A stretch of DNA of 64,000 nt from a virus. The notes under the pieces are model-generated. The model saw only the letters and a list, made by a program, of their open reading frames with translations, ran no database searches and was not told where the DNA came from. Positions 10,482-63,951 of this stretch are shown here, in pieces. The stretch's first letter is position 1, and each line of letters opens with the position of its first letter. The stretch is from the IMG/VR virus record IMGVR_UViG_3300037485_001485, positions 1 through 64,000 of that record. One strand, given 5' to 3'. A program made the position numbers and the translations under genes.

Positions 10482-12236
10482 TCAACGTGCGCGTCGTCGC
10501 ACAAGGAGCGGGGAGGCGGCAGCACGGCGCGGCGGGGTGCGCTTCAGCGCGCGGTAGGCCGCCGAGCGGGCGCGTTGGGTCGTCGCCGGCTTCCCGGCGA
10601 CCATCCCGAAGTCGGCGGCGAGCCGGGCCGTGCGGAGCGTTCCAGGGACGAAGGCGCCCTTCGCCCGGATCTCGATCCGCACGGTGTTCCCCTGCCGGTC
10701 CAGCTTGCGCTGGCGATAGCCCGCCGCCCGAAGCGCACGCTGCACGTCGGGGATGGGCCACCGGGTCGCGTCGAACAGGACCGCGTGAACGATGCGCGGG
10801 TCGGGCAGCTTGGGCAACGGCAGCGCCGCCGTGGGGTTGCTCGCGACGGTGGGGACGCCGTCCTTCAGCGTCTTCATGCGCTCCCAGGCGTCCATGACGT
10901 TGGGGGCATCAACGTGTTCGATGGTGGCGGTGCCGATGTGCGCTGCGACGATTCCGCGCTTTGCATCTACAATCTCGCCGATGCGCTCGTCAATGGTGTC
11001 GTCGGCGTGGAGATACCAGATCGTCGTCGGGCGCGTCTGCCCGATGCGGCGGATGCGATCTTCCGCCTGCTCCTCAGCCGCCGGGGTGTACCACCGCTCT
11101 AAAAACAGGAGGTGGCGAGCCTTCGTCAGCGTGATGCCTTCCTTCGCGGCCATGCTCCCCAGGAACAGGGGCACCTTGCCCGCTTGGAAGGCGTCGATGG
11201 CGACCTGACGCTGTTGCCGCGAGTGTGTGCCGTCGAGCCGGACGAACGGAATGGACAGGCGGGACAGGGCTTGACCCAGGAGATCGAGCACGTCGGAGAA
11301 CATGCCGAAGATCACGACGGGCTCCCCCCGCTTGACCATGTTCGCGGCCCACGCCGCCGCACCGGGGACTTTGCCGCGCCCGAGGATGCGCCGGAGGTAG
11401 GCCACCTTCGCCAGCGGTTCCGCCGCCAAGGCGCGCGTCGCCGCGCTCTCCGCAGCCGCCGCGTCCTCCAGCACGCGAGGGAGGTAGTCGTCCAGCCACT
11501 CGCTGAACTCCTCCTTGGCCTTGTCGTACTCCATGCGAATGTCGTCGGGGATCGTCGTCTTCAGGGTGACCCGGCGCTTCGGCGGGATGTCGGGTGCCAC
11601 GTCCTCCAGCAGTCGCCGCAACATGACCGGGGGCGTCGGCCCGAACATGCTCCGCAGCGTCTCCAGTTCGTCGGCGTGGTTCACCAGCGGCGTGCCCGAG
11701 AGGAGCAGGACGTGCGGCGCCGGGGCACAGATCGCCTGCAAGGCCCGTCCCCGCTGCGTCTCCTCGCCGGCCTTCGCGTAGTGCGCCTCATCCGCGACGA
11801 TGCACCGGAAGCCCCGAGAGAGGAGGTCAGGGAGCCGCGCCGCGAGCACGTCCCAGGGACAGATCGTGATGTGCGTCCCCTTCGGGATGGCGCCGTGAAA
11901 GCCCTCGACAACGTGGACCTTCGCGCCGGGAACCCACCGCGCCGCTTCCCGCCGCCAGTTCCACGCGACCGACGACGGGCACACGACCAGCATCGGGCAG
12001 AGCTTCGCGGCGTTTTCCCGCATGGCAACGAGCACTTGCGGCGTCTTCCCGCAGCCGGGGGCATCGGCGAGGAGCACCCGCCAGCCGTTCGCCGCGAGGA
12101 AGTCCACGCCGTCGCGCTGAAACGGCCGCAGCTCCGGCGGGGGCGCTTTCGGGGCGACGCGAGCACGGAGAGCAGACGATCTGGACTTCGCGGCGTGAGC
12201 GAGACGAAGAGCTGCGGTACGGCGGTCAACGGCCAT
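10482..12236 (-). CDS. SNF2/RapA-like superfamily 2 helicase
   Basis: The 584-aa protein has motif I DAPGCGKT (58-65), DEAH (149-152) and SGTP (180-183). A C-terminal helicase lobe follows, with VIFGMFSDVLDLL, RLDGTHSRQQR and RRIGQTRPTTIWYLH. This is a SWI2/SNF2-type translocase. After the core, residues about 477-550 form a separate module (VHAVLFDATRW...FVPGTLRTARL...GMVAGKP) that also ends the 1379-aa giant protein of the same operon. The tail is Arg-rich. I start at ATG 12236; the long upstream frame is only antisense to the Nudix gene. A role in remodelling DNA during replication or packaging is possible. Confidence 0.93.
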   Translation of the reverse strand: MAVDRRTAALRLAHAAKSRSSALRARVAPKAPPPELRPFQRDGVDFLAANGWRVLLADAPGCGKTPQVLVAMRENAAKLCPMLVVCPSSVAWNWRREAARWVPGAKVHVVEGFHGAIPKGTHITICPWDVLAARLPDLLSRGFRCIVADEAHYAKAGEETQRGRALQAICAPAPHVLLLSGTPLVNHADELETLRSMFGPTPPVMLRRLLEDVAPDIPPKRRVTLKTTIPDDIRMEYDKAKEEFSEWLDDYLPRVLEDAAAAESAATRALAAEPLAKVAYLRRILGRGKVPGAAAWAANMVKRGEPVVIFGMFSDVLDLLGQALSRLSIPFVRLDGTHSRQQRQVAIDAFQAGKVPLFLGSMAAKEGITLTKARHLLFLERWYTPAAEEQAEDRIRRIGQTRPTTIWYLHADDTIDERIGEIVDAKRGIVAAHIGTATIEHVDAPNVMDAWERMKTLKDGVPTVASNPTAALPLPKLPDPRIVHAVLFDATRWPIPDVQRALRAAGYRQRKLDRQGNTVRIEIRAKGAFVPGTLRTARLAADFGMVAGKPATTQRARSAAYRALKRTPPRRAAASPLLVRRRAR

Positions 12237-26024: not shown

Positions 26025-26723
26025 CTACCCGATCTCGATGGCCGTCTTGTAGAAACCGAACATCGCGACCTTCAGCGCGAGGGGGTTGGTCGCGCCGACC
26101 GCCGCCGTGTTCGCGCCGTAGCGGAGCAGGATCGAAAAGGTCGAGTTCCCAGGCAAAGAAATCGGGTGCTTGCGGTACATCCAGATCGAGCCCGCGCCGT
26201 TGTTCATCGAGCCGATCTGGGTCGCGTTCTGCGTGGTGGACACGGAACCGAAGGCGCCGCCGCCCGCACCGATGAGGTGGAGGGGAGCGATGTCAACCTG
26301 GGTCTGGACGAAATCCCAGGTCAAAGTACCGTTGTTCTGCACGTTGACGAGGTCGGTGATCGTCTCGACCGTGTTGAGGGGCACGGCGAGGGTGGTCAGC
26401 ACGTTGGCGACCTGGGAGCCCGCGTAGACGAGGCAGGAGAGGCCGTAGGCGTCGAACGCCACGCCGGCCGGAATACGGCCGCCTTCCTTCAGGGACGTCT
26501 CGGCGATGGTCAGGCCGGACGAGAAGCCCTGGCCGACCTGCCCGAGGGGGGTCGTGAAGAGGCGGAAGGTGCCGTTGGCGAGGGCGGTGCCGACGTTGTG
26601 GAGCTGGGTGCTCCAGAGGGACTGCTCGCCGTACCGGAAGAGGTTCTTGGGCTGCTCGAAGGGAACCTGGGGGATCATGTCGCTGCCGGGGTTGGCGAAA
26701 GCGAAGCCGGGAACACCATACAT
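26025..26723 (-). CDS. Best candidate major capsid protein
   Basis: The 232-aa protein begins MYGVPGFAFANPGSD and reads NLFRYGEQSLWSTQLHNVGTALANGTFRLFTTPLGQVGQG in its first half. Beta strands continue to SIWMYRKHPISLPGNSTFSILLRYG and a final LKVAMFGFYKTAIEIG. It is the most ordered, least repetitive protein of the structural block. An AGGAG site lies close to its ATG and GC hairpins flank the gene on both sides, which fits a highly expressed product. Its size is like the larger single-jelly-roll capsid protein of sphaerolipovirus-like virions. The capsid call is inference. Confidence 0.84.
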   Translation of the reverse strand: MYGVPGFAFANPGSDMIPQVPFEQPKNLFRYGEQSLWSTQLHNVGTALANGTFRLFTTPLGQVGQGFSSGLTIAETSLKEGGRIPAGVAFDAYGLSCLVYAGSQVANVLTTLAVPLNTVETITDLVNVQNNGTLTWDFVQTQVDIAPLHLIGAGGGAFGSVSTTQNATQIGSMNNGAGSIWMYRKHPISLPGNSTFSILLRYGANTAAVGATNPLALKVAMFGFYKTAIEIG

Positions 26724-40691: not shown

Positions 40692-41141
40692 ATGTCCTTG
40701 CTGAAGCGAACCATCCCCATCCCCACGTTCCGTCGCCCGGACGCGAAGCCCCCCACTGTACCCGTACCCGCTTTCCGCGCGCCGTTCGCGCGGCCCGAAC
40801 TTGTGGCGCCGGAGGCGCCTGTGCTGCCGCCCCCGGCACCCCCGACGCCCGCCGACCCGCTCCCCTCGCACATCGCGAAGAAGGCGGTCCCGAAGGTCCG
40901 GACGGGCGTGAAGCCGCTCCCCGACCCTCGCAAGGGGGGACGCCCCCGGCACAACGTGGGGACGACGCGCGACGTGAAGGCGACGATCAGCTTGTCGCAG
41001 GACGAGGCCGATGTCATGTCGGCGGCGGCGGCGAGGGAGGGGCTGGCCTTCAGCGCGTGGGTGCGCCGCATCATCTTCGACGTGGCGCGCGTCGTCCAGC
41101 GGCCTCACGCGGAGCGGGGCGGTCTGGAGGGCAGCGTCTAA
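40692..41141 (+). CDS. MobC-like ribbon-helix-helix protein
   Basis: The 149-aa protein has a Pro-rich basic N-terminal half and a C-terminal RHH-like domain: strand TRDVKATISLSQDEADVMSAAAAREGLAFS followed by AWVRRIIFDVARVV. The pattern matches MobC-type relaxosome accessory proteins and related antitoxins. No relaxase gene is visible, so a role in mobilisation is not supported; autoregulation or plasmid-type partition control is equally likely. A hairpin follows its stop. Confidence 0.83.
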   Translation: MSLLKRTIPIPTFRRPDAKPPTVPVPAFRAPFARPELVAPEAPVLPPPAPPTPADPLPSHIAKKAVPKVRTGVKPLPDPRKGGRPRHNVGTTRDVKATISLSQDEADVMSAAAAREGLAFSAWVRRIIFDVARVVQRPHAERGGLEGSV

Positions 41142-41180: not shown

Positions 41181-41238
41181 AGGGCGCAAGGAGGCAACAG
41201 CGCACAGGCAGCATAGCCGCTATGCCGCTATGCCGCCA

Positions 41239-47395: not shown

Positions 47396-47805
47396 GCGTG
47401 CAGGAGGTAGCCCGCAGCCGCCACAAGGTCGTCGGGGCCGTGAAGCGTCGATGCCCCGTCGCGGCGTACCAACAGCAGCAACCGAGTCCGCGCCAGCCGC
47501 TCCAGCATCTTCTTCGCGCCCTCCGATGCGGCGTCTCCGGCCTGGATCTCCCGCAGCACCATCGGCACAGAGGCCACGGGCGCCGGGATGTCGGGGATGA
47601 TCCCGGTGAGGTCGGGCCGTTCGGCGTCGGGGAACGTCCCCGGCGCGTCAAGCCAGCCGCAGCGATAGGCGCGGCAAGGGTGCGGACGCTCGGCGTAGAT
47701 GGCGCAGCCCCCGCTGGCGTGCGCGCACGCCGTGAACGCGGGCTTCGCGAGGGCGTCGATGCTGAACGCCGTGCAGCACGCCGTGCAGTCTCCGCAGCCC
47801 CTCAT
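47392..47805 (-). CDS. YkgJ-like Cys-cluster protein
   Basis: The 137-aa protein has an N-terminal cluster CGDCTACCTAFS, then CAHASGGCAIYAERPHPCRAYRCGWL. This is the eight-Cys pattern of the YkgJ/DUF-type zinc or iron-sulfur cluster proteins. The C-terminal half is helical. Its start overlaps the helicase stop (ATGA), so it is translated with the helicase. The function of this family is not established. Confidence 0.88.
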   Translation of the reverse strand: MRGCGDCTACCTAFSIDALAKPAFTACAHASGGCAIYAERPHPCRAYRCGWLDAPGTFPDAERPDLTGIIPDIPAPVASVPMVLREIQAGDAASEGAKKMLERLARTRLLLLVRRDGASTLHGPDDLVAAAGYLLHA

Positions 47806-49592
47806 GCGTTGAGCTTCGCGAGGATCGAGTCGAACACGGCGTCGGGATCGTCCAGCCCGGCGAGGGCTTCGCTCGCCCCGTCCAAGCTCCCCCCGTCGGC
47901 GACCCGCTCGACACGGGCGATCTTGTCGAGGAGGATCGACGCGACGTGCTCGTCCACCGTGCCCTCCGCGATGCAGTAGTAGATGCAGACGGGGCGGTCC
48001 TGCCCAAGCCGGGTGAAGCGGCCCTCCCATTGGGTCAGTTGGCCCGGCGTGTACGGCAGCATCACGAAGAAGGCGGCGTCGGTGCATTGGAGCCCGTCGA
48101 TGGCCGTGCCCCACGCCTCACCCGTCCCGACGAGCACACACCCGCCGTCATGCGCGATGTAGGCCCGCTTGATGTCGTCGCGCTCGTTCTGGCTATGCCC
48201 GCCGTGCCCACACCAGACGGTCGCCTTCCGACACGCGCCCCGGATGCTCGCGGCGAGGTCGTCGGAGTCCCGACGGCGCCCGGTGAACACGACGATCTTA
48301 TGCCCGCTCTCGACATGGTCGGCGATGCGCCCCAGCACCGCTTTGCGCTTCTTCGACGCCGCCTCCGCGAGCTTCAGTTCCAGCAAGGCCGCCGGCCCGT
48401 TGCCCGCCGCTGCCTTCTGTTCGCGGCTGAACCCAGGGGCCGCGTCGCACTGTTCGGCGCCGCTGATATACATGCTCTCCCGACGCTTCGCGGGGAGTTG
48501 GGCGTGGGTCGTCGCGTGATCGACCCGGTGTAGCAGGTAGCCCAGCCGTGCCACAAGTTCGTCGGGGTTGCTAATCCCTGACGTGTCGAGCCCGCCGTAG
48601 GTGCCCGGCCGCGCGTCACAATAGCGACGCGCCCAAACGCTGAAGCTGCCCCAAGCCCCCGGCTCTAACAAGTCGAGTTGGCCCCAAAGGTCGCGGATAC
48701 GGTCGGACACCGGGGTCGCCGTCGTCGCCAGCCGCCGCGTCGCCGCCTTCGACAACGTCGCCACCGCCGTCACGGTGTTGTCCCTGGGCATGATGCCGAC
48801 GATCCCGCCGTCCTGCGAGGGCTTGACGAAGCCGCCTCGCGCCTTGACGCTGGCGATGGCTGCGGCGTCGTCCTCCGCAAGCGGCAGAACCTCCCAGCGT
48901 TTGCCGCTCTTTCCCTTGTGGCTCTCGTCCAGAACGAGCGAGGTTACACCCGTCGCGAGCAGCGCGTTGACATGGTCGGCTACGCTCTCCCAGCCGACGA
49001 CGATCCACGGGGGTTGACCCTCCTGCCGGCACCACGCGACGTAGTCGGCGAGGCCCTGCCAGCGGTCACGCTTCCGCACTTCGGCGGCGGGCTTCAGGGC
49101 GTAAGCCTCGTAGCGGGTGAAGCGTGACACCTCGCGCGCGAACTGCGCCCGCGTCGTTGCCCGCGTCACGATGACGGTGGCCCCGTGGGGACGGCTCGCC
49201 GCCCACAGGATCGCCGACACCGTTTTGCCGCTGCCCGTCGGATGATGGAGCATGGCCCCCGCCCGGTTGACAGTAAAAGCCAACGCCTCTCGTTGGTACG
49301 TTGTCAGAAACCCGTCGAGGACAAACGGCTTCGCCACGCCGTCGAGCGAGGCGCGCACCTCCTCCCAGGACGCATCGCCTTGCGGGGGCTGAAGCCATGC
49401 CACGTCGCCCGCCGTCACGCCGACGCCGCGCAGCAGCCCGTCGAGGATCGGGACGGCGTGCCACGACGCCGTGACGCGAGGCCCCTTCACCCGCACGCCG
49501 GGGATGGCTTCCATCGCTTCCGCCAGCCCGTTCGGCATCGGGGGCATCGTCGCCGTAAGGTGCGGATAAGAAGGCGGGGCAAAGCGGCTCAT
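47802..49592 (-). CDS. Second SNF2-type superfamily 2 helicase
   Basis: The 596-aa protein has motif I PTGSGKTV (118-125), DESH (222-225), a TTATPVSD segment like motif III, and a C-terminal lobe (HKIVVFTGRRRDSDDLAASI; VLVGTGEAWGTAIDGLQCTD; QWEGRFTRLGQDRPVCIYY). This is a phage-type SNF2/SSL2 helicase; it is only distantly like the 10482-12236 helicase and lacks that protein's C-terminal module. GGAG lies about 8 bp before the ATG, and an early-family promoter lies just upstream. Probably an early replication or recombination enzyme. Confidence 0.93.
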   Translation of the reverse strand: MSRFAPPSYPHLTATMPPMPNGLAEAMEAIPGVRVKGPRVTASWHAVPILDGLLRGVGVTAGDVAWLQPPQGDASWEEVRASLDGVAKPFVLDGFLTTYQREALAFTVNRAGAMLHHPTGSGKTVSAILWAASRPHGATVIVTRATTRAQFAREVSRFTRYEAYALKPAAEVRKRDRWQGLADYVAWCRQEGQPPWIVVGWESVADHVNALLATGVTSLVLDESHKGKSGKRWEVLPLAEDDAAAIASVKARGGFVKPSQDGGIVGIMPRDNTVTAVATLSKAATRRLATTATPVSDRIRDLWGQLDLLEPGAWGSFSVWARRYCDARPGTYGGLDTSGISNPDELVARLGYLLHRVDHATTHAQLPAKRRESMYISGAEQCDAAPGFSREQKAAAGNGPAALLELKLAEAASKKRKAVLGRIADHVESGHKIVVFTGRRRDSDDLAASIRGACRKATVWCGHGGHSQNERDDIKRAYIAHDGGCVLVGTGEAWGTAIDGLQCTDAAFFVMLPYTPGQLTQWEGRFTRLGQDRPVCIYYCIAEGTVDEHVASILLDKIARVERVADGGSLDGASEALAGLDDPDAVFDSILAKLNA

Positions 49593-52760: not shown

Positions 52761-52843
52761 CGTGCGGAGTGTTCTCATATAGCGATTATTGCCACTCGGC
52801 AAAAGCGGCGGGGTCGGTTACCCGTCCCGGCGAGGCAACACAC

Positions 52844-54019
52844 ATGATCAGTGAGAAGGAAGCGGCCTGGGCCATCCCGCCGCAGGGTTGGGTACGCGAC
52901 TACATCGAGCACGCCGTGCTCCAGACGACGAGCCCGCTGGGCTACCATCTCGCGACGGCGCTCGCCGTCCTCGCGACGACGTGCCCCACCGACTACGGGA
53001 TGCGCTACGCGGGGACGATGCGCCCCAACTTCTACGCCCTGCTCGTCGGGCGTTCGGGCGAAGACCAGAAGAGCACGGCGCTGGGCATCGGGCGCGACAT
53101 CCTCTTCGCGGCGGCGCCGACGCTCATCGGCGAACATCCGGGGAGCTGGGAAGGGCTCGTTGACTCGCTCTCGCGTCAGCCGTCCCAGGTGCTCGTCTAC
53201 TCCGAGTTCGGCAAGTTCCTTTCGCAGGCGCAGAAGGGGTACTTTGAGCCGCTGAAGGCGTTGATGACCGACCTCTGGGACGCGACGCCGCAGCAGCGGG
53301 CGAAGGCGAACGGTCAGTCGATCCGCGTGGACAACCCCCGCCTCTCGATCATGGCGGCGTGCTCGCTGCCCTATCTGGAGCGTCACACCGAAGCCCACGA
53401 TTGGAGCGGCGGCTTCATGGGGCGGTGGGCCGTCATCTACGCTCGGCGCGAGCGCACCGACCCCGACCCCGTCGGCGATCCGTCGCGCATCCCGGAACTG
53501 GCCGCCGGCCTCGTCGCTCGCGCGACGATTCCCCAGGCGGCGGTTTGCTTGGGCCTCGACGCGCAGGCCAAGGCGATGTGGGATGAGTGGTACTACGAAG
53601 TCGAGCGTCGGCCCTTCCCCGACATGATCTCCGGCGCGAAGACCCGCGCCCCGACCATCGCGCGCAAGGTCGCCATGCTCTACGCCTGGGACTTCGGGGC
53701 GGCGACGGGCGGCGCTCCGTTTCACGTCGGCCTCGACGTGCTGGAGCCGGCGCTGCGCTTCGCGGAACTTCACCTTCGGAGCATCGCGGGCCTCGCCGAC
53801 AAGCTCGCCGAGCATCCGGAAGCCGTGACCCGCCGCACGGTGCTGGAGTCGATCCCCGACACCGGGGCGACGCTGGGCCAAGTGCTGCGTACCACGAAGA
53901 TGAAGCGTCGCGGCGTCTCTGAGATCCTCGACGCTCTGGTCCTCGACGGGTCGATCACCCGCGCCTCGCTCGCGGGCGGCGACGCCTTCTTTGAGCGGAT
54001 GGTCGCCAAGGCCCTGTAG
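52844..54019 (+). CDS. DUF3987-like replication ATPase
   Basis: The 391-aa protein matches my recollection of DUF3987/primase-associated helicase proteins: GYHLATALAVLATTCP, NFYALLVGRSGEDQKSTALGIGRDILFAA, then VYSEFGKFLSQAQKGYFEPLKALMTDLWD and LSIMAACSLPYLERH. The P-loop position reads VGRSGEDQKST, so Walker A is present but unusual. EFGKFL is the likely acidic motif. A winged-helix-like end follows (RRTVLESIPDTGATLGQVLRTTKMKRRGVSEILDALVLDG). GAGG lies about 8 bp before the ATG. It lies beside the iteron region and could be the initiator-associated helicase. Confidence 0.88.
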   Translation: MISEKEAAWAIPPQGWVRDYIEHAVLQTTSPLGYHLATALAVLATTCPTDYGMRYAGTMRPNFYALLVGRSGEDQKSTALGIGRDILFAAAPTLIGEHPGSWEGLVDSLSRQPSQVLVYSEFGKFLSQAQKGYFEPLKALMTDLWDATPQQRAKANGQSIRVDNPRLSIMAACSLPYLERHTEAHDWSGGFMGRWAVIYARRERTDPDPVGDPSRIPELAAGLVARATIPQAAVCLGLDAQAKAMWDEWYYEVERRPFPDMISGAKTRAPTIARKVAMLYAWDFGAATGGAPFHVGLDVLEPALRFAELHLRSIAGLADKLAEHPEAVTRRTVLESIPDTGATLGQVLRTTKMKRRGVSEILDALVLDGSITRASLAGGDAFFERMVAKAL

Positions 54020-54093: not shown

Positions 54094-54708
54094 CTACGCG
54101 GCGGTGCGACGGTGCTCGCGGAGGAGACGCTGCATCGTGGTCGGAGCCATCGGCACGGCCTCACCCGGCGCACGGGGGAGCAGGGGCGCCGACGCCGACG
54201 GTGCATCGTCCCCGTAGGCCCAACGGGTGACCACGTCGAGCGGTGCGCGGGGAAGCAGCGCGTAGTCGGCCGTCACACCCGCCGGGGCGGCGAAGAAGGC
54301 GCGATCCGGGAAGGCGCGTTCCTTGGCTTCGGAGTGAACGCGCATCCCCCACGTCATCCCGGCGAGGTCACGGGGTTTCAGATGGCCGGCGATCACCAGC
54401 AACGCGATAGCCGCCACCACGTCCTCCGGCACGTCCACCGCAAGCTCCGACACGATGAGGTCCGGCACCTCCTCTCCCACGCTCGCCGACCACGCGACGT
54501 AGCAGCGCCACGCGGTTCGATGCGGTGAGCGATGGTGCGCCGGCAGGGTGGCTACCCATCCCGCCAGCCCTTCGCTCGTCAGCGGCGCGTGCGCGAGCAT
54601 CCGCCGCACCTGGGTCAGGTAGGTAGAGACGGACGCCGAGGTCAGCCCCCGTTGCGCGACGAGCCACGCGGCGAAGGTCTTCCAGGGTTCGGATCGAGTG
54701 CGGGCCAT
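54094..54708 (-). CDS. Tyrosine-recombinase core-binding-like protein without catalytic residues
   Basis: The 204-aa protein begins MARTRSEPWKTFAAWLVAQRG. Residues 8-70 (FAAWLVAQRGLTSASVSTYLTQVRRMLA...LAGWVATLP) look like the SAM-like core-binding domain of XerC/D recombinases. The second half has no RKHRY catalytic set. AGGAGC lies close to the ATG. It sits next to the iteron region with its own early-type promoter, which suits a DNA-binding initiator, a regulator or a decayed integrase. A complete recombinase is encoded at 5153-5938. Confidence 0.82.
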   Translation of the reverse strand: MARTRSEPWKTFAAWLVAQRGLTSASVSTYLTQVRRMLAHAPLTSEGLAGWVATLPAHHRSPHRTAWRCYVAWSASVGEEVPDLIVSELAVDVPEDVVAAIALLVIAGHLKPRDLAGMTWGMRVHSEAKERAFPDRAFFAAPAGVTADYALLPRAPLDVVTRWAYGDDAPSASAPLLPRAPGEAVPMAPTTMQRLLREHRRTAA

Positions 54709-54733
54709 GATGCTCCTGACAGGTGGGAGCTAT

Positions 54734-54762
54734 GGCATAGCCCGCCTGGACACGGGCGGCAA
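54734..54762 (-). promoter_or_regulatory. Early-type promoter for the 54708 gene
   Basis: On the leftward strand TTGCCG (54762-54757) and TATGCC (54739-54734) are separated by 17 bp ending in GCGGGC. ATG 54708 is 25 bp further on. Confidence 0.6.
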
Positions 54763-54797
54763 GCGTTGACGGTGCTCTCCCCGGTGCTGAAGGCGTG

Positions 54798-54879
54798 GAA
54801 ACGAAACTCCGGAGTTTGGGGAGCGCCGAAACGAAACTCCGGAGTTGGAGGGGGTCCGAAACGAAACTCCGGAGTTTGG
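54798..54879. repeat. Three iterons with 30-bp period
   Basis: The core ACGAAACTCCGGAGTT begins at 54801, 54831 and 54861. The inner AACTCCGGAGTT is a perfect palindrome (AAACTCCGGAGTTT in copies 1 and 3). The spacing is close to three helical turns, so bound proteins would align on one face. Typical of initiator binding sites. Confidence 0.85.
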
Positions 54880-55043
54880 TGAGCCATACCTAATAGGGAT
54901 AGGGGCATAGCTATCACTTTTTATCTCTCTCTCTATACTCACTTTCCTAATAGGGCATAGCGGCTATGACTTTGGCATCCTGAGTAGGGGTTCTCGGGGC
55001 TTCTCCAGGGGTGTAGAAGCACAGTAAAAAAACACGAGCTATG

Positions 55044-55089
55044 CCCTATCGCTATTAGGAATAGGGCCTCTTTCCTAATAGCGATAGGG
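55044..55089. repeat. 16-bp inverted repeat in the origin-like region
   Basis: CCCTATCGCTATTAGG (55044-55059) and CCTAATAGCGATAGGG (55074-55089) are perfect inverted arms around 14 bp. Related CCTAATAGGG words are at 54889 and 54946. Confidence 0.8.
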
Positions 55090-55149
55090 GGCTATGCCCC
55101 AGAAAGTGCCTATGTTGGATAGGCGTATGCCCGCTATGTGTTTGAGCCG

Positions 55150-55289
55150 ATAGGGGGCTATCGGGCTATGAAGTGAGCCGAAACAGTCAGGCATAGGGGG
55201 CTATCGGGCTATGACGCATCGCCGTTCTTTCCACAAAGCGCCCTATGACCATGAACCGCCGTCGGGCATAGGGGGCTATCGAACTATCG
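55150..55289. repeat. Three direct repeats of ATAGGGGGCTAT type
   Basis: ATAGGGGGCTATCGGGCTAT begins at 55150 and 55193, and a partly diverged copy begins at 55268. The same ATAGGGGGCTAT word forms the -10 end of the early promoter at 63924-63951, hinting at a shared binding protein. Confidence 0.75.
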
Positions 55290-55302
55290 GCATAGTGGAC
55301 CC

Positions 55303-55330
55303 TTGACGCGCGGCAGGGACGAGCTATTAG
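55303..55330 (+). promoter_or_regulatory. Early-family promoter for the DUF932-like gene
   Basis: TTGACG (55303-55308) and TATTAG (55325-55330) with 16 bp between and GGCA in the spacer. AAGGAG and ATG 55355 follow. Confidence 0.7.
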
Positions 55331-55354
55331 AGGTGGGCAAGCAAGGAGCACCCG

Positions 55355-63923: not shown

Positions 63924-63951
63924 TTGACGGCTGGCAATAGGGGGCTATGAT
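63924..63951 (+). promoter_or_regulatory. Early-family promoter at the right edge
   Basis: TTGACG (63924-63929), GCTGGCA next to it, then ATAGGGGGC and TATGAT (63946-63951) after 16 bp. One of the best matches to the family. It contains the ATAGGGGGCTAT word repeated in the origin-like region. Confidence 0.78.

What the first reader, a model, noticed from the sequence alone, without database searches (positions are those of the whole stretch)
54709..55354. Candidate replication origin with 30-bp iterons and palindromic core
Three iterons at 54798, 54828 and 54858 have an exact 30-bp period and a 12-14-bp palindrome AACTCCGGAGTT. They are followed by a T/C-rich tract, a 16-bp inverted repeat and three ATAGGGGGCTAT direct repeats. 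The flanks encode a DUF3987-like ATPase, a recombinase-like DNA-binding protein and a DUF932-like protein. Known family A polymerase phages rarely show such plasmid-type iterons, so this may be a phage-plasmid.
Basis: partly seen in the sequence, partly recalled or inferred. Interest (0 to 1): 0.7.

Follow-up and report, generated by a model that had tools for sequence, protein, structure and literature searches.

The report
Repeat-rich probable phage replication origin
The largest non-coding stretch of an unclassified environmental bacterial virus carries two different sets of protein-binding repeats around its most easily melted DNA, which makes it the best candidate for where the virus starts copying its DNA, but nothing found shows that the virus lives as a plasmid.

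Summary
Window 54709-55354 is the only large gap (646 bp; next 210) in a 72,861-bp genome that closes as a circle, and it is the most A+T-rich part of a 68% GC genome. A homologous region lies upstream of the same gene in two other viral contigs; a third, distant relative has the same layout with different repeats. Best reading: an origin and early-control region, with two repeat sets flanking a melting element next to the DUF3987 primase/helicase-like gene (about 0.5). Rivals are a pure operator region, a packaging site and a centromere. The phage-plasmid idea is not supported: an integrase is conserved in relatives, and no Rep or ParA was found. GC skew follows gene direction and says nothing about the origin. 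The proteins that bind the repeats are unknown; 54094-54708, a ribbon-helix-helix-like protein and a small HTH protein are candidates.

The parts
54709..55354 (.). Non-coding control/origin region, 646 bp, largest gap and most AT-rich 600 bp of the genome
54798..54887 (+). Three 30-bp iterons GAAACGAAACTCCGGAGTT(T)..., each with palindrome AAACTCCGGAGTTT
   Evidence: one AAACTCGCGAGTTT copy in homologous region of G004 (L006 272-285)
54889..54970 (.). AT-rich candidate unwinding element with T/C-rich tract 54915-54949 and CTAT/ATAG words
   Evidence: lowest-GC 100 and 200 bp of the genome; aligned with L005
55038..55055 (+). Conserved core GCTATGCCCTATCGCTAT
   Evidence: identical in G003; first 13 bp also in G004
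55044..55089 (.). Perfect 18-bp inverted repeat, 10-bp loop; right arm not conserved in G003
55150..55169 (+). Triplet 1 ATAGGGGGCTATCGGGCTAT, inside 27 bp identical to G003
55193..55212 (+). Triplet 2 ATAGGGGGCTATCGGGCTAT, 43 bp after triplet 1
55243..55246 (+). Lone CTAT where a third triplet stands in G003 (42 bp after the first CTAT of triplet 2)
55268..55295 (+). Quartet ATAG-N4-CTAT-N4-CTAT-N4-ATAG; its first CTAT is 33 bp after 55243
55303..55330 (+). Sigma-70-type promoter TTGACG-N16-TATTAG of the virus-wide class (TTGNC-N4-GNCA[AG] dyad at -35)
   Evidence: orthologous promoters in L005 and L006
55355..56746 (+). Conserved protein with faint DUF932 similarity; 79% and 74% identical in G003 and G004
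54094..54708 (-). 204-aa protein divergent from the region; candidate repeat binder; homologue (31-36% id) next to the equivalent region of G002
52844..54019 (+). DUF3987 primase/helicase-like protein (ORF may start at 52769)
40692..41141 (+). Ribbon-helix-helix (NikA-like) protein; hypothetical binder of the CTAT array
   Evidence: PF21983 E 6.5e-4, below cut-off
41213..41231 (+). Only other cluster of three CTAT/ATAG words in the genome, 72 bp after the RHH-like gene

Best explanation
The region is the origin and early-control region of a circularly mapping, integrase-carrying virus. Shown: two unrelated sets of repeats (three 30-bp palindromic iterons on the left; helically spaced groups of CTAT/ATAG cores on the right) lie on either side of the most meltable DNA of the genome, between a divergent pair of genes and next to a DUF3987 primase/helicase-like gene. 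Its key words are kept in relatives while the sequence between them drifts. Inferred: virus proteins bind the two repeat sets cooperatively on one face of the helix and bend the DNA. The AT-rich, T/C-rich tract opens, the DUF3987 protein and helicases are loaded, and the virus PolA copies outward. The same bound proteins control the two flanking promoters, so initiation and early transcription are coupled.
For: Only large gap in a dense genome (646 bp; next 210). Most AT-rich 100, 200 and 600 bp, and the AT-richest stretch of the fetched loci of G002 and G003 too. Repeats far above chance. Motif words kept in G003 and G004, with AAACTCNNGAGTTT also in the homologous region of G004. Distant relative G002 has DUF3987, then the 54094-type gene on the minus strand, then three direct repeats 20-32 bp apart, then an AT-rich island (32% GC in a 71% GC locus). 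Replication genes present: PolA, DUF3987, SNF2-type helicase, Sak4, exonuclease. Phage-inducible islands have the same overall design, two iteron sets flanking an AT-rich region beside pri-rep (PMC6092414).
Against: No known initiator family is encoded nearby. No DnaA box in the region. GC skew is uninformative. Everything seen also fits a pure regulatory region. The 18-bp hairpin is not conserved. The G002 parallel is a single case with unrelated repeat sequences. No read coverage was available.
Confidence: 0.5

Rival explanations
1. Pure transcription-control region: operators for one or two virus regulators between divergent promoters (a lysis/lysogeny or early-gene switch), with no origin function.
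For: Divergent genes; conserved promoter at 55303 belonging to a virus-wide promoter class with a dyad at -35; the CTATGA word of the array resembles the class -10 box (CTATGAT); ATAG-N4-CTAT also sits on the promoter at 63924 in this virus and in G003; palindromic AAACTCNNGAGTTT looks like a dimer operator.
Against: Far longer and more AT-rich than needed to control two single promoters; the G004 promoter at the 63924 position lacks the ATAG half; the array is not repeated at other promoters; the 54708 promoter is weak (7 of 12).
Confidence: 0.3
2. Packaging start or physical genome end (cos/pac-like site) with repeats for a packaging protein.
For: Contigs of both relatives G003 and G004 end inside this region, at points about 70 bp apart in the alignment.
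Against: This genome closes as a circle elsewhere, in polA, by a 127-bp overlap; contigs also break at variable repeats; no terminase was recognised here or nearby; the site is 14 kb from the long minus-strand block of presumed virion genes (7-40.6k, inferred).
Confidence: 0.09
3. Centromere-like site: an RHH protein (40692-41141) binds the 8-bp-spaced CTAT array as Omega binds the 7-bp heptads of parS of pSM19035, and segregates an extrachromosomal prophage.
For: Array units lie next to each other in direct and inverted orientation at 6-9 bp like RHH operators (PMC9499535); an RHH-like gene is present and the only other triple cluster lies 72 bp after it.
Against: No ParA found; integrase present and conserved; RHH match is below cut-off; clusters hold 3-4 cores, and pSM19035 needs at least four contiguous repeats.
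Confidence: 0.07

Closest known systems
Replication origins of phage-inducible chromosomal islands (pri-rep-ori), PMC6092414
   Same: Two sets of repeats flanking an AT-rich stretch close to a primase/helicase gene on an integrase-carrying element
   Different: [quoted passage not shown] here another gene lies between, the two repeat sets are unlike each other, and no Rep is recognised
Iteron plasmid origins (reviewed in PMC4980987, seen as abstract only)
   Same: Tandem repeats at fixed phase beside an AT-rich unwinding element
   Different: No Rep initiator family, no DnaA box; the repeats are palindromic
parS of pSM19035 bound by the RHH protein Omega (PMC9499535)
   Same: Short cores abutting in direct and inverted orientation, overlapping a promoter region
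   Different: 4-bp cores mostly 8 bp apart in clusters of 3-4, no ParA, binder unknown
Extrachromosomal cluster A mycobacteriophage prophages (PMC7157519)
   Same: Phage genome with a non-coding replication region of similar size (about 0.6-0.7 kb segments)
   Different: Those replace the integrase with parABS; this virus keeps an integrase and has no parABS

Membership tests
Iteron-type replication origin | At least three direct repeats at fixed helical phase | tested here: met
   30-bp exact period x3; triplets at 42-43 and 32-33 bp
Iteron-type replication origin | Adjacent AT-rich unwinding element | tested here: met
   Lowest-GC 100, 200 and 600 bp of the genome
Iteron-type replication origin | Cognate initiator gene next to it | tested here: inconclusive
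   54094-54708 has no family; structure model poor
Iteron-type replication origin | DnaA boxes (common, not universal, so not by itself excluding) | tested here: not met
   No TTATNCACA with up to 1 mismatch in the region; the host's own box is unknown
Iteron-type replication origin | Supports autonomous replication | not testable with these tools
   needs the host
Phage-plasmid | Plasmid replication or partition genes (RepA, ParA/ParB) in a phage genome | tested here: not met
   None found by Pfam or PHROGs; canonical Walker A only in the SMC-like and Sak4-like proteins among first gene calls
Phage-plasmid | Extrachromosomal prophage | tested here: inconclusive
   Integrase conserved in G001 and G004 argues for integration; the lifestyle itself was not observed
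RHH/ParA partition site | ParA-type ATPase encoded with an RHH centromere binder | tested here: not met
   RHH-like protein yes, ParA no
Tyrosine recombinase (for 54094-54708) | Family match, with catalytic domain | tested here: not met
   No Pfam, NCBIfam, PHROG or PDB match; homologue only E 0.42 to Phage_int_SAM_5; hhalign with the virus integrase fails

The most novel reading that the evidence does not exclude
A new type of viral origin in which an RHH-like protein nucleates on helically phased 8-bp-spaced CTAT cores on one side, a second regulator binds palindromic iterons on the other, and together they melt the AT-rich tract for a DUF3987 primase/helicase and a PolA replisome without a Rep or DnaA protein.
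Probability: 0.12. Interest if true: 0.65.

Novelty: new member of a known kind. Interest (0 to 1): 0.4.

Why it matters
It gives a concrete, testable origin candidate for a virus group with almost no relatives among 50,697 phage records, and a case where the binding sites are clear and kept by selection while the initiator is unknown. Because the repeats beside the 54094-type gene differ completely between two relatives but keep their place, the pair could show how an initiator and its sites change together.

Tried and rejected
GC skew as an origin marker: rejected, third-position skew has the same sign on both coding strands, so cumulative skew mirrors gene direction. Terminal-protein linear genome: made unlikely by circular closure. 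18-bp hairpin as a conserved structural element: rejected, right arm missing in G003. RNA element: no Rfam match up to E 1. DNA pattern GCTATGCCCTATCNNTAT also hit L018 and L020; both are low-GC, mostly coding DNA without an array, taken as chance. ATAGNNGGCTATCGGGCTATG found only G003 in the viral contigs and one archaeal MAG hit without an array, taken as chance. Full promoters in the array: none but 55303 and a weak 54762 on the minus strand; no intrinsic terminators. AlphaFold models of 54094-54708 (pLDDT 55, N-terminal helices only) and of the DUF932-like protein (pLDDT 40) were too weak to use; Foldseek gave nothing for the first. Phage and plasmid record searches with the flanking genes gave no match, except one weak DUF3987 hit in a Vibrio phage. 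CTAT words at other promoters as proof of a regulon: rejected, CTAT is part of the virus's own -10 box.

Full report
What the window is. The window is bases 1-64000 of a 72,988-bp viral record. Its first and last 127 bases are identical, the overlap an assembler typically leaves when a contig closes on itself, so the unit is a 72,861-bp circular map at 68% GC. The closing point lies in the polA gene and has no special meaning. The virus encodes a family A DNA polymerase, an SNF2-type helicase, a DUF3987 protein, a Sak4-like annealing protein, an exonuclease and a tyrosine integrase. The origin DNA and the flanking proteins have no match among 50,697 phage records except one weak DUF3987 hit.

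The gap 54709-55354 is the only large non-coding stretch (646 bp; next largest 210). It is the most AT-rich 600 bp (54% against 62% GC for the runner-up) and includes the most AT-rich 100 and 200 bp. The three iterons are exact in period, and their palindrome occurs nowhere else in the genome within two mismatches. The region has 32 CTAT or ATAG words against 7.8 in shuffles; 18 neighbouring pairs lie 6-9 bp apart against 5.9 expected, and 9 are exactly 8 bp apart against 1.4. The words form triplets ATAG-N4-CTAT-N4-CTAT (3 found, 0.01 expected). Taking the first CTAT of each triplet, spacing is 43 then 75 bp; a lone CTAT at 55243 splits the 75 into 42 and 33, where G003 has a full extra triplet (its spacings: 43, 43, 31). 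These are close to four and three turns of the helix.

Relatives. The DUF932-like protein led to two contigs, G003 and G004 (79% and 74% identity). Upstream of it both carry the array. G003 shares a 27-bp and an 18-bp word exactly with the window; G004 shares less but has the 13-bp word GCTATGCCCTATC and a perfect AAACTCGCGAGTTT. Overall alignable identity to G003 (66%) is near that at third codon positions (64%), so conservation is concentrated in the words, as expected of binding sites. Both contigs end inside the region, so their left halves are unseen. A more distant contig, G002, has DUF3987, a 36%-identical homologue of 54094-54708 and then a non-coding region with three direct repeats 20-32 bp apart next to that gene, followed by an island of 32% GC. 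Layout is kept and repeat sequence is not.

How it probably works. Shown: two repeat sets around the most meltable DNA, next to a replication gene, with a conserved promoter at the right end. Inferred: cooperative binding, bending, melting of the AT-rich tract, loading of the DUF3987 protein, replication by PolA, and control of the flanking promoters by the same proteins. The published origins of phage-inducible islands have the same plan, two iteron sets flanking an AT-rich region (PMC6092414). I put this at about 0.5, because every feature also fits an operator region (0.3), and none of the tools measures replication.

Who binds. Three candidates, none shown. 54094-54708 is next to the left iterons and has the same place in G002, but it matches no family and its model is poor; the label 'recombinase-like' rests on one homologue's E 0.42 match. 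The 40692-41141 protein has an RHH-like domain (NikA-like, E 6.5e-4, below cut-off), and the only other triple CTAT/ATAG cluster in the genome starts 72 bp after its stop codon; RHH proteins such as Omega bind arrays of short repeats in direct and inverted orientation (PMC9499535). The small HTH protein 2668-2916 is highly conserved in G004 (90% over 62 residues).

Phage-plasmid. Not supported: integrase present and conserved, no Rep or ParA. This does not exclude extrachromosomal replication during infection. GC skew cannot decide: third-position skew is negative on both coding strands, so the cumulative curve follows gene direction.

A side result. The promoter at 55303 belongs to a class found across the genome: a dyad TTGNC-N4-GNCA[AG] covering the -35 box, then a -10 box of the form CTATGAT. 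Of 30 matches to the dyad, 12 lie 44-55 bp before a predicted start codon; 11 decoy motifs of the same kind have none there. The decoy test uses my own gene calls, which are approximate, and the -35 box itself (TTGAC) is part of the dyad, so some of the signal is ordinary promoter. The class is present in G003 and G004.

Limits. Gene calls are from a simple codon model. G003 and G004 stop inside the region. The G002 comparison is one case. No coverage or host is known.

Noticed in passing
2621, 2930, 41465, 47395(-), 49639(-), 55303, 63924 in the window; 64415, 67287, 67689, 69932 in the rest of the 73-kb record: Virus-wide promoter class: dyad TTGNC-N4-GNCA[AG] over the -35 box plus CTATGAT-like -10, about 50 bp before start codons; 12 of 30 dyads lie 44-55 bp from a start, 0 for 11 decoys; also in G003 and G004. 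It may be a dispersed operator for one regulator.
   Followed up: partly
whole record G000, e.g. 7155-40596: No terminase, capsid or tail gene was recognised by Pfam or PHROGs at useful scores (best: a portal family at E 0.0095 and a tail family at 6e-4), and several proteins have one apparent transmembrane stretch and an NPRRRR-like C-terminus. The virion type is unclear.
   Followed up: partly
26025-26723 (-): 232-aa protein 82% identical in G004, the best conserved of the presumed virion block, without any match in PDB sequences or phage records; possible major capsid protein.
   Followed up: partly
10482-12107 (-): Probably a second SNF2-type helicase besides 47802-49592 (PHROG 62 E 2.5e-74 for one of the pooled proteins; assignment to this gene is by inference).
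   Followed up: no
41213-41231: GCATAGCCGCTATGCCGCTATGCC between two convergent gene ends after the RHH-like gene: only triple CTAT/ATAG cluster outside the origin region.
   Followed up: partly
L005 position 1 and L006 position 1: Contigs of both relatives end inside the homologous region, about 70 bp apart in the alignment; longer iteron arrays, strain variation or a physical end could each explain it.
   Followed up: partly
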